Source: Sphaerosporella brunnea (lineage: Eukaryota; Ascomycota; Pezizomycetes; Pezizales; Pyronemataceae). From it: a stretch of DNA of 64,000 nt. Location of the stretch: the NCBI GenBank assembly GCA_008704415.1, contig VXIS01000140.1, forward strand, positions 49,186-113,185. The letters run 5' to 3'. How positions within the stretch are numbered: position 1 is the stretch's first letter; every line of letters starts with the position of its first letter. Below, piece after piece: positions 1-44,956 of this stretch. Under the pieces are notes generated by a model. The model had not been told where the DNA came from and ran no database searches. It was given only the letters and a program-made list of their open reading frames with translations. Both the position numbers and the translations under genes were made by a program.

Positions 1-285
1 CGGGAATATAATGCCAGTTATATTAGCAGTGGTGAGGGAGGCGGAGGAGGAGGAGAAGGAGGGAGCGAGGTTGTGCAGACGGTTGACCTGGATGAGTTTG
101 TGTTTAGGGAGGAGGCGGAGGGGGGACGATATACGAAGGCTTGTAGATGTGGTGAGGAGGAGGGGTTCGTCATAAGGGAGGAGGAATTGGAGGCTGCAGT
201 CGGGGAGGGGGAGAAGGAGGTTGTGGTGGGATGCGTGGGGTGTAGTCTTTGGTGGCGGGTGGGGTTTGAGGTTGTAGATGGTTAA
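1..285 (+). CDS. dph4: DPH4-like J-protein, C-terminal part (partial)
   Basis: The window opens inside this gene. Frame 1 is open from base 1 to the stop at 283-285, giving about 94 residues. A Gly/Glu-rich linker is followed by a DPH-type (CSL) zinc finger: a CRC pair, then about 30 residues later a CVGC pair followed by SLWWRV. In this family the finger follows a J domain, and the protein (yeast Jjj3/Dph4) helps the first step of diphthamide synthesis on elongation factor 2 in the cytosol. The first visible residues (REYNASY) would fit the end of a J domain, but that domain lies upstream. A DPH3-type protein is less likely, because here the finger is at the C terminus after a linker. Confidence 0.75.
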   Translation, partial: REYNASYISSGEGGGGGGEGGSEVVQTVDLDEFVFREEAEGGRYTKACRCGEEEGFVIREEELEAAVGEGEKEVVVGCVGCSLWWRVGFEVVDG

Positions 286-326: not shown

Positions 327-504
327 ACTTCCTTCAGCGTCCCGACAACATCCGACGGGAAAAAAACAAGTGCAAAGAAAAAATCGCGACGCCGAAAGAT
401 CCTAAAACCCTTCGTAGAAACATCATCTCTCTTTGTGCAATGAGGGTGACATCTCCAGAGCCTATTGCTTCAGGAGCCAACAGAACTCACATCAAGGTAA
501 GTAT
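327..504 (-). ncRNA. U1 snRNA-like gene, divergent copy
   Basis: Read on the minus strand from 504, the RNA begins ATACTTACCTTGAT, the U1 5' end that pairs with the 5' splice site. Stem-loop I folds with one bulged U (GAGU(U)CUGUUG against CAAUAGGCUC). Stem-loop II has the loop ATTGCACAAA, the U1A-type AUUGCAC motif, with one stem mismatch. Stem-loop III (CGAAGGGT against ATCTTTCG) is kept. A short terminal CGUC/GACG stem follows. The Sm-like tract at 377-385 reads GATTTTTTC and lacks the usual G after the U run, so function is uncertain. It is the same strand and layout as the better copy at 13756-13946. The 3' end is approximate. Confidence 0.75.
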
Positions 505-1473
505 GAGAAAAGGAAAAGGAAAGAGGGAGAAAAGGCGGGTAAAATATGCAGGTGCGAGTGATGCCTCGTGCCTTCCCCTAGCGGTTTTCTTTTTTTCATA
601 TTTAAATTGAATTTCTTCTTCGAGTGCTCATGGAAGTGCGGGAACATGGAGTGTTGATGTTGTGTTCAAGGGCAATTCGCCGAGTGAGAAGCTATGGAAC
701 GCGGGCATTACCACCGGAGTGCTTTCATCTCACATGGCACAGGTACAAAGCACTCAGGGCATAGGCATCAGGCAAGATTTCCACATCGCCGTCTAGCTAC
801 CCTTCTCTCTTTAGCACGGCACAAAGTAAGCCGGGAGTCGTCGTTATCGGCCCGTTGAAGAGATTCCAGGGCCAATGAGCTACAAAGGAATGAAAGACTT
901 GTTCCAGTTCGTGATCGCCATTAACCCATCTACAACGTTCGTAGAGGATTTGGGTGCGGTTCAATTAATAGTAGGACGTGTGCTGATGGTTGGATGCAAA
1001 GGGCTACTGCGCGTGTGGGGTCACCAAGCTCAGCCCTATCGCTGGAGCTCCCCACCACCACATAACAAGCGACGAACTGCAAGGAGCGATAATGCAGAAG
1101 CACAGCAGTAATACGTACATAATAATAAAAGGGCATCTCAACCATCCATTCATCATTCCACTGCTGTTTTCTGCGCTGTTTGAACTTCCGCATCTGAGAA
1201 ACGGCAAGTGCCATGCCGCCCGACAGCTCCCGACACCTACTACCTAGCTCTACTCAACTGAGTCACAGAGCTGCTGAGAGCTAAATCTGCTGTCAGACGA
1301 ACAAACTCATATCAGCTGGAAGGCAGTCACGCGTCTCCATAAATACCCGCTCTCTCCCACTTCGCGAAGAAACGCGTCTTCCCATCCATCTCACCATTCA
1401 AAAAAAGAAAATACTGCCCCACCTCCCAGCCCCTTCCCCTCTACCCCTCTACCCCTCTCGAACTTCACTACCA
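505..1473. other. Intergenic, no gene seen
   Basis: Only short overlapping frames on both strands, none with a recognisable domain. It holds the upstream region of the U1-like gene (AT-rich ATATTTT near 543-549 on the minus strand) and the 5' region of the CHFR-like gene. One open stretch at about 625-796 (plus) has no family match and no convincing start. Confidence 0.5.
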
Positions 1474-12372: not shown

Positions 12373-13755
12373 CTTACGACGCTATGGGATATGTATGGGA
12401 GGGGCTGCCTTTGCTTGCTTGCTTGCTTGCTATCTGGACGGTTCCGTCGTTTATTGTCGTTCTGCGTGGTGGAGGAAAAATTCACGGACGGCTAGTTCCT
12501 AGCAGATAGGCAGTTTACGCTCCGGGTGGCCACCATCACCAATCCTGGCCGTCGCGGGTCATCCCATGATTCCGAATCTCCGATCCCGAGCGGCCAACAG
12601 GCAACAACCCGCGAGGCCTGACCCGAGGCTGTGCGGTCTTTTCTTGTCTCCCGCACGGGCCCGGGGAGACGCAGCGTTGATCTTCAATCTACAATTGCCG
12701 TTTACAATCGATCGGTGCGGGGCAGTTGCACCAGTTCATTTGGCTTCGGCTCACCGACTCTGCAAGGGACAGAAGGGACAGACTTTTCTCCCGCATCACA
12801 CAATCACACAATCACAACAAACGAAAATAACGATAGAAAATATCGCGATGTATCCCGTCATCAGCATCCCCCATCCATCGCCCCAATTTAATGGGACTCA
12901 ACGGACAGCAGACTTCCTATCAGGGAGAATATTCCTCTGGTTTGCTAGAGCGACTGAAGAGTCGTTCTGGCATCTAGACGCCGTCGAAAAAAAGGCTGGA
13001 CGTTAGACGTGGCTGCAAACGTGAATTTTTGATCTGAAGAAGAAAGAAAACGAAGTTGCGTCTGTTGGCCGCCTTTTATGGTTCTTCGGCTGACAGGGTT
13101 AGGGTTTGGCGGCAAAAGTTTTTGCCGCTACGTTTGGCCGACGCATGGATCAGCACTCGAGAACGCGCAGTGCGCAGTGAAAGAAATGGCAGCGGTGAGG
13201 TCGACGATTACTGTTTACACCCATAACTAACAATACTGTACCAAACATTTCATTTGTTTCCAAGAGCGGTACGGAGCTAGAGGGAGAACTACACTGAAAA
13301 AAATGAAAGTTGTAAGCCAGAGTGATATTCAGTGATTCAGACAGTTTTTGACTTTCTCCGACACAGAACAACCTCGCTGGCCTTCCCATAGTAACATCCG
13401 CCCTCTACTTCACCGTTTTGGCGGCGCTGTCTCTCCATGCCCCTGTAATATAGAGTGAAACTGTACCATACCTTAAGTAGTGAGATGAATCCTCAGCATA
13501 AAGCTTATTTGAAAAGAGTACCCCATCTTGTGAACGGAGGCTGGAGCCATCGCAAGACAGGAAAGTCGACGCTGAATTGTACCGACTCTCCTCCCTCCCG
13601 AGCGAATACTGGGGAGCCCGTAGAAGAAGCATTTAAAGTGCTCGTCAGGTGTCGAGTCCGGAAAGCAGCGGATCAAGGGCTCATATGCTGAAGAGTCCGT
13701 CGGAGCGAACGGGATCGTAAAAGTCTTCACAACCTCTCCATCATCGTCATCATCA
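12373..13755. other. Intergenic upstream of the aminopeptidase gene
   Basis: About 1.4 kb with scattered short frames and no domain. It has a run of GCTT repeats near 12412-12430 and AT-rich stretches. It separates the aminopeptidase start from the 3' end of the U1 gene. Confidence 0.5.
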
Positions 13756-13946
13756 TCATCCTTCAGTGTCTCGACAACGTCCAAACACCAACGGAAAAAC
13801 AAAAAAACAGTGAGCAAATCAAAAATTACGACGCCGAAAGATCCTAAGACCCTTCGCAAAGATGCTTATCCCTCTATGTGCAATGAGGGAAGCACCTGTG
13901 GAGCCCGCTGATTTTGGAGCCAGCGGGCTCGCATCAAGGTAAGTAT
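13756..13946 (-). ncRNA. U1 spliceosomal snRNA
   Basis: Read on the minus strand from 13946, the RNA begins ATACTTACCTTGAT, which pairs with GTAAGT donors. Stem-loop I is a perfect 10-bp stem, GAGCCCGCTG against CAGCGGGCTC. Stem-loop II is CCCTC/GAGGG with the 10-nt loop ATTGCACATA, the known U1A recognition sequence. Stem-loop III (CGAAGGGT against ATCTTTCG) follows at about 13833-13854. A canonical Sm site, AATTTTTGA, is at 13819-13827, and a terminal hairpin (GTGTTT against AGACAC) ends near 13760. A TATATAAA box lies about 40 bases upstream. This is the U1 RNA of the spliceosome, acting in the nucleus with Prp39 among its protein partners. The 3' end is estimated from the terminal hairpin. 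Confidence 0.9.
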
Positions 13947-13983: not shown

Positions 13984-13991
13984 TTTATATA
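13984..13991 (-). promoter_or_regulatory. TATA box of the U1 snRNA gene
   Basis: TATATAAA on the minus strand, about 40 bases upstream of the U1 5' end at 13946, a position expected for a fungal snRNA promoter. Confidence 0.55.
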
Positions 13992-14109
13992 GGGAAGCCA
14001 GGCTTGGCAGAGCTGCATTGGGAATCACTCGCTCCCCTCCACTTGCCGCCTTTACTCTTCAGACTCTTCAGACACCGATACCCCTCCGTACTTCGCGAAC
14101 AGTGAGCTA

Positions 14110-14988: not shown

Positions 14989-15126
14989 CCGCATAAACTC
15001 ACAAGCAAGAGACTGGGCTACGTCACTGGCTAAGTCACTGCGCCATGTGGCAAAGTCACTAAGCCTACATGGCGCAGTGACTTAGCCCAGTCTCTTGCTT
15101 GCGAGTTTATGCGCGAGTTTATGCGG
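14989..15126. mobile_element. 138-bp foldback MITE flanked by TA
   Basis: Outer ends CCGCATAAACTC and GAGTTTATGCGG are inverted copies flanked by TA on both sides (14987-14988 and 15127-15128). Inverted arms of about 50-60 bases share AAGCAAGAGACTGGGCTA and AGTCACTGCGCCATGT; the left arm has a 12-base insertion and the right arm an internal duplication. The loop is about 18 bases. It is non-coding and probably a Tc1/mariner-related MITE, judged only by the TA. Confidence 0.75.

Positions 15127-42653: not shown

Positions 42654-44956
<2,303 letters not shown>

What the first reader, a model, noticed from the sequence alone, without database searches (positions are those of the whole stretch)
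327..504. Second, divergent U1-like gene 13 kb from the first, with compensating stem changes
The copy at 327-504 differs in stem-loop I (GAGUUCUGUUG/CAAUAGGCUC against GAGCCCGCUG/CAGCGGGCUC), yet the stem still pairs with one bulge, and the terminal stem changes on both sides (CGUC/GACG against GUGUUU/AGACAC). Paired changes suggest selection on structure, so this may be a variant U1, not simply a pseudogene. The Sm-like tract (GAUUUUUUC) is weak, which argues the other way.
Basis: partly seen in the sequence, partly recalled or inferred. Interest (0 to 1): 0.75.

Follow-up and report, generated by a model that had tools for sequence, protein, structure and literature searches.

The report
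Divergent, probably fading U1 RNA gene
This is an old, diverged copy of the gene for U1 RNA, the RNA that marks where introns begin, in a fungus with about eighteen such copies; paired mutations kept its folded shape, but it lacks the usual start signals and part of its protein-binding site, so it has probably stopped working recently.

Summary
The feature is real: on the minus strand, 504 to about 366, lies a full-length U1 snRNA homologue (Rfam 54.0 bits; 116.7 bits with a model of 14 other copies). It is one of 18 U1 matches in this Pezizales-like genome. The 17 distinct copies covary strongly (14 of 40 pairs changed on both sides), and stem-loop I here keeps its pairing through paired changes. 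The claimed compensation in the terminal stem fails: 7 bases of one arm are missing and another hairpin forms. Paired changes show past selection on the lineage, not present function; the clearly broken sister copy passes the same test. Against present function: the only Sm site of 17 without its G, no GCCAAGCC (12 of 17 have it) and no TATAAA (13 of 17) upstream. For it: intact recognition sequence and loops, and one double change on its own branch. Most likely an ancient functional U1 paralogue in early decay; an active special variant is not excluded. Expression and synteny could not be tested.

The parts
366..504 (-). divergent U1 snRNA gene body ('u7'), RNA 5' end at 504
   Evidence: Rfam U1 54.0 bits; model R1, built without it, 116.7 bits over 373-504
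495..504 (-). 5' splice-site recognition sequence AUACUUACCU, intact
   Evidence: pattern match; 3 in the window, 0.03 expected by chance
458..488 (-). stem-loop I, one bulged C, loop GCUCCUGAAG (468-477)
   Evidence: fold; pair table; one pair changed C-G to U-A on this copy's own branch
415..457 (-). stem-loop II with loop AUUGCACAAA (432-441)
   Evidence: pair 63/91 changed C-G to U-A, shared with the C8 copy
393..414 (-). stem-loop III
387..392 (-). 3' strand of helix H, pairing with 489-494
377..385 (-). degenerate Sm site GAUUUUUUC (13 of 17 distinct copies have AAUUUUUGA; 16 of 17 have RAUUUUUG)
340..360 (-). shortened stem-loop IV, now UCCCG/CGGGA
   Evidence: 7-nt deletion in the 5' arm compared with the 13.8-kb copy
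539..546 (-). place of the TATA box; here TATTTTAC, with no GCCAAGCC element upstream
1..285 (+). 3' part of a DnaJ plus CSL-zinc-finger gene (DPH4/JJJ3-like by domain content, name recalled), convergent with the U1 copy
   Evidence: Pfam Zn_ribbon_CSL 1.2e-14, DnaJ 2.7e-10
13814..13946 (-). second U1 gene ('u1'), with intact recognition sequence, stems and Sm site, and TATATAAA (13984-13991) and GCCAAGCC (14001-14008) upstream

Best explanation
It is a paralogue of the U1 snRNA gene, one of a family of 18 matches. Its lineage split from the other U1 genes long ago and worked as a U1 for much of that time: it kept the 5' splice-site recognition sequence, the two protein-binding loops and the four-helix body, while stem bases changed in matched pairs. 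More recently this copy lost its promoter elements and the 3' part of its Sm site and shortened stem-loop IV, so it probably makes little or no stable U1 particle now. Shown: homology, fold, covariation of the family, missing elements. Inferred: past function, present silence, order of events.
For: Family covariation (14 of 40 pairs with changes on both sides, reached by 2 of 500 shuffles; covariation score reached by 0 of 500). From relative u6 to this copy: 23 substitutions, 9 of 38 pairs touched, 1 broken, 4 changed on both sides (simulated 7.7 broken, P = 0.0002). Among the double changes, pair 63/91 is shared with C8 and pair 29/44 is this copy's own. Decay: Sm site, no GCCAAGCC (best score reached by 634 of 1000 shuffles) and only a weak TATA-like stretch (23 of 1000), stem-loop IV deletion. 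The sister copy on C8 is clearly broken: it sits in a duplicated stretch with a broken DPH4-like gene, has four core insertions compared with this copy and lacks the TATA region.
Against: Since the split from C8 the body has no indel and no change in the recognition sequence or in loops I and II, and one pair changed on both sides, which a gene dead for long would hardly show. GCCAAGCC may not be essential: u5 lacks it and has an intact Sm site, though its own start is altered. A weak TATA-like stretch is left at about the right distance. The u16/u7 comparison shows little extra constraint on the body (91.7% against 83.7 to 89.2% in non-coding flanks and 91.9% in the DPH4-like part), which fits decay but gives no support for a long recent working period.
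Confidence: 0.6

Rival explanations
1. A working variant U1, expressed from a different promoter and assembled on a weak Sm site, perhaps in one developmental stage, as reported for U1 isoforms of animals.
For: Intact recognition sequence, loops and helices; a C-G to U-A double change on its own branch (P 0.02 to 0.05); loop I has 7 of 10 bases of the Rfam consensus, against 6 of 10 in the other window copy.
Against: Sm site changed at three of nine positions compared with 13 of 17 copies; no GCCAAGCC and no TATAAA; shortened stem-loop IV; fold energy hardly better than shuffles (z -1.31, 19 of 200 as good).
Confidence: 0.27
2. A plain pseudogene whose pairing is left over from a functional parent, with no selection since the split from its C8 sister or earlier.
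For: The C8 sister is such a copy, and it passes the same pairing test by inheritance (u6 to C8 copy: 1 broken, 4 double, P 0.0008). Few substitutions separate the two, and 0 broken pairs among 5 to 7 substitutions is not improbable (P 0.11 to 0.16).
Against: The double change shared with C8 (pair 63/91) and the long common branch (0.12 substitutions per site) need a functional period after the split from the other U1 copies; one further double change is this copy's own.
Confidence: 0.12
3. Not U1 at all: the complement of an ordinary 5' splice site AG|GTAAGTAT in a plus-strand gene.
For: The third ATACTTACCT of the window (44380-44389) looks like exactly that, inside a gene that is kinase-like by eye.
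Against: Match to U1 over 130 model positions and 36 pairs, with 17 further U1 matches in the genome.
Confidence: 0.01

Closest known systems
U1 spliceosomal RNA (Rfam RF00003)
   Same: AUACUUACCU 5' end, stem-loops I to III, helix H, AUUGCAC in loop II, in the same order
   Different: 54.0 bits, below the gathering score of 69.5, as are all 18 matches listed for this genome; the Sm site lacks its G
U1 isoforms and variants of animals (human vU1, Drosophila, mouse and others)
   Same: several divergent U1 paralogues in one genome, with regulated expression (PMC4291461, passages; PMC5159530, abstract start and one passage; PMC10645366, abstract start in the listing)
   Different: here a fungus; lineages differ by sets of paired stem changes; no expression data
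snRNA pseudogenes
   Same: the C8 sister copy: core insertions, lost promoter region
   Different: this copy has no core indel since its split from that sister

Membership tests
U1 snRNA | 5' end complementary to the 5' splice site | tested here: met
   AUACUUACCU at 495-504, minus strand
U1 snRNA | stem-loop I with U1-70K loop (GAUCAaGAAG in the Rfam consensus; protein assignment recalled) | tested here: met
   GCUCCUGAAG, 7 of 10 like the consensus, on a paired stem; protein binding itself not tested
U1 snRNA | stem-loop II with loop AUUGCAC (U1A site, recalled) | tested here: met
   AUUGCACAAA
U1 snRNA | helix H and stem-loop III closing the four-way junction | tested here: met
   minimum-energy fold; pair table
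U1 snRNA | Sm site RAU(4-6)GR (consensus recalled) | tested here: not met
   GAUUUUUUC; 16 of 17 distinct copies have RAUUUUUG; Sm binding itself not tested
U1 snRNA | Rfam gathering score | tested here: not met
   54.0 of 69.5 bits; but 0 of the 18 matches of this genome reach it
active U1 gene of this genome | GCCAAGCC near -60 and TATAAA near -45 | tested here: not met
   present in 12 and 13 of 17 distinct copies, not here; that these elements are needed is inferred
active U1 gene of this genome | stable capped transcript | not testable with these tools
   no RNA data held
snRNA pseudogene | broken stems or indels in the core | tested here: inconclusive
   39 of 42 columns pairs formed here, but the broken C8 sister also counts 39 of 42 because its insertions are not counted; this copy has no core indel since the split from C8, but a deletion in stem-loop IV

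The most novel reading that the evidence does not exclude
The fungus runs several structurally distinct U1 particles side by side, and this copy is an active, specialised one with its own promoter and a non-standard Sm core (the G of the Sm site is changed, as it also is in U7 snRNA, recalled).
Probability: 0.12. Interest if true: 0.7.

Novelty: new member of a known kind. Interest (0 to 1): 0.42.

Why it matters
Laboratory yeasts have one U1 gene (recalled). Here 18 U1 matches (none over Rfam's cut-off) and 20 U2 matches (19 over it) stand against 4 U4, 2 U5 and 2 U6 over the cut-off. At least five U1 lineages differ in stem-loop I and in its loop yet keep the fold. That makes a natural test of how far U1 can change, of whether paralogues serve different introns, and of how a U1 gene dies: here promoter, Sm site and stem-loop IV changed while the body stayed intact.

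Tried and rejected
Relatives in other species: a pattern ATACTTACCTTG...CATTGCAC found 5 stretches in the viral collection and 7 in the prokaryote genomes; the U1 model gave at most 13.3 bits on these 12, so they are taken as chance. No other fungal genome could be searched, so synteny and orthology remain untested. Fold energy did not separate this copy well from shuffles (z -1.31). Paper searches for fungal or variant U1 families found 687 papers (25 listed), 0, 5, 1 and 22 (12 listed); none of the listed titles or abstract starts deals with multi-copy U1 in filamentous fungi. Searches for Sm-site mutation work gave nothing used here.

Full report
What is there. On the minus strand of the window, from 504 downwards, lies a full-length homologue of U1 snRNA. 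A default Rfam scan is silent (no match at any gathering score), but with the threshold lowered U1 is found at 366-504 with 54.0 bits and at 13814-13946 with 61.7 bits; the gathering score is 69.5. That silence is a property of the genome and not of this copy: all 18 matches listed in the whole assembly (G000, 50.6 Mb, 640 contigs) stay below that score. The search ran at E up to 10, at which 9 of 14 prokaryote control genomes also ring (0 over the cut-off), so the weak end needs support: a 20-base pattern from the stem III to Sm region finds the same 18 places with at most 2 mismatches; 12 further places with 3 mismatches are about what the reversed control pattern gives (10) and are taken as chance. 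A DNA search with this copy finds 11 places, itself included. Two of the 18 are identical and lie in a 6-kb inverted repeat of 99.7% identity on the same contig, so 17 are distinct. The assembly also has 20 U2 matches (19 over the cut-off), 4 U4, 2 U5 and 2 U6 over the cut-off, with weaker U4 and U6 matches left out of these counts (3 and 7). Counts are lower bounds, since only the best candidates are scored.

The organism. The closest named relatives of an aminopeptidase in the window are Trichophaea hybrida (87%) and Geopyxis carbonaria (80%), then Morchella importuna, Rhizina undulata and Tuber brumale (75 to 73%); closer unnamed metagenome proteins exist. For a WW-domain protein the best named hits are Rhizina undulata and Tuber magnatum. 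This points to the Pezizales; the species was not determined.

Structure and covariation. The 17 distinct copies were aligned and a structure was taken from their individual folds (two loop pairs were dropped before counting). Of 40 pairs in 6 helices, 14 have at least one change on both sides (shuffles 9.5, 2 of 500 reach it); 94.4% of 680 cells are standard pairs; the covariation score is 0.351 against 0.217 for shuffles (0 of 500); sliding the partners by 1 to 3 columns lowers it to 0.141 or less. One of the five measures, further pair types, is not above shuffles (47 against 45.1, 121 of 500). The structure came from these same sequences, which favours it on the share of cells paired; the double changes are less open to that objection. 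A covariance model built from 14 copies without this one, without its sister on C8 and without the C47:897 copy gives this copy 116.7 bits, the C8 copy 88.3 and the C47:897 copy 69.6; the 14 members score 122.3 to 155.2 by construction.

Is the paired change in this copy more than chance? Compared with its relative u6 there are 23 substitutions in 126 columns; 9 of 38 pairs are touched, 1 is broken and 4 changed on both sides with pairing kept. With the same number of substitutions placed at random the mean is 7.7 broken and 0.5 double changes (P 0.0002 and 0.0004). Compared with the other window copy: 31 substitutions, 16 of 39 pairs touched, 2 broken, 5 double (P 0.0006 and 0.0016). But the same test is passed by the broken C8 sister (u6 to C8: 1 broken, 4 double, P 0.0008 and 0.0002), and on broken pairs also by the aberrant C47:897 copy (5 broken against 13.2, P 0.0004, though not on double changes, P 0.46). 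It therefore shows history, not present function. Most of the history is shared with the C8 copy (support 98 for the two together). After that split this copy has 5 clear substitutions (7 with two ambiguous columns): one in helix H (C-G to U-G), a C-G to U-A double change in stem-loop I, and two in the Sm site; none falls in the recognition sequence or in loops I and II. One double change among so few has P 0.02 to 0.05, and no broken pair has P 0.11 to 0.16. This is weak evidence for selection up to the recent past. An extra base in stem I, the bulged C, is shared with C8.

The sister copy on C8 as a yardstick. It lies in a duplicated stretch that includes the end of the neighbouring DnaJ/CSL-zinc-finger gene (DPH4-like by domain content), broken there by several deletions. 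Its U1 has four insertions in the core compared with this copy, a change in loop II, and a gap where the TATA region would be. It folds no better than shuffles (z 0.04, 91 of 200). Between the two, the U1 body is 91.7% identical, the upstream 176 bases 83.7%, the 3' tail 84.1%, the stretch up to the DPH4-like stop 89.2% and the DPH4-like coding part 91.9%: a small difference only.

Signs of decay. (1) Sm site: GAUUUUUUC. Thirteen of 17 distinct copies have AAUUUUUGA and 16 of 17 have RAUUUUUG; this copy alone lacks the G. The C8 sister has AAUUUUUGC, so two of the three departures are this copy's own. (2) Promoter: GCCAAGCC stands 59 to 63 bases upstream in 12 of 17 copies (11 exact, 1 with one mismatch) and TATAAA in 13 of 17 near -45; U4 copies show similar elements by eye. 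This copy has neither; its best GCCAAGCC-type score is reached by 634 of 1000 shuffles and its TATA-type score by 23 of 1000, so a weak TATA-like stretch is left. The copy u5 also lacks GCCAAGCC, with an intact Sm site but an altered start, so the element may not be essential. (3) Stem-loop IV: 7 bases of the 5' arm are missing, and the fold that remains pairs UCCCG with CGGGA. (4) On its own the body is only slightly more stable than shuffles (z -1.31; the other window copy -6.41), with 12 G-U pairs against 6.

Reading. The lineage worked as a U1 for a long time; this member seems to have lost expression signals and its Sm core recently, before the body has eroded. A working special variant is possible (0.27) and would be the more interesting answer. 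Descent from U1 is as good as certain; membership as a functional U1 fails on the Sm site and on the local promoter type, and expression could not be tested.

Comparison. U1 isoforms with regulated expression are described for fly, mouse, frog and sea urchin, with silk-moth U1 variants in the reference list (PMC4291461, passages), and human variant U1s for stem cells (PMC5159530, abstract start and one passage). For filamentous fungi the listings show nothing comparable; this says little, since only an open-licence library was searched and only the listed entries were seen.

Noticed in passing
L055 to L065 and L070 to L073 (U2 genes of the same genome): 15 of the 19 fetched U2 copies carry what looks like a spliceosomal intron of 59 to 172 bases at the same place near the 5' end of U2 (GTANGT, a branch-like CTAAC in most, CAG; between a CTTTG-type end and CC[TA]TTTGGCTTAGATC), with a TATA-type stretch 41 to 43 bases upstream of the leader. 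U2 would then be needed to make U2. No RNA evidence; introns in U2 of a basidiomycete yeast are recalled, and searches listed nothing on it.
   Followed up: partly
L070 to L073: Four U2 copies have a longer stretch (about 20 to 50 bases by eye, instead of about 9) after TCTGTTCTTTT and a changed body; a second U2 class or pseudogenes.
   Followed up: no
L066 to L069: Four U2 copies lack the normal 5' end and share another, repeat-like upstream sequence.
   Followed up: no
L024 897-1052 and L025 1001-1156: Two identical U1-like copies in a 6-kb inverted repeat (99.7%) on the window's contig, with a quite different 5' end (CCACTCATATAG) but with TTTTGGCCGAC and TATAAA upstream and AAUUUUUGG as Sm site.
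   Followed up: partly
L016 about 963-1100 (C390 copy, u5): U1 copy whose start reads ATACTTACTTACCT, a 4-base repeat in the recognition end; its loop I is GAUCAUGAAU and its TATA stretch resembles that of U2 (by eye).
   Followed up: no
C639 (L013 to L015, L017, L018): Eight of the 18 U1 matches lie on one 138-kb contig, some as divergent or convergent pairs.
   Followed up: no
window 14993-15110: Long inverted repeat, matched below cut-off by an unrelated microRNA model (43.8 of 168 bits); perhaps a small foldback element.
   Followed up: no
window 12846-13035, minus strand: Weak match to the H/ACA snoRNA snR34 (34.5 bits, gathering 39, E 0.6), including an exact GAUAGGAAGUC; possibly a real snoRNA about 800 bases from the second U1 gene.
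   Followed up: no
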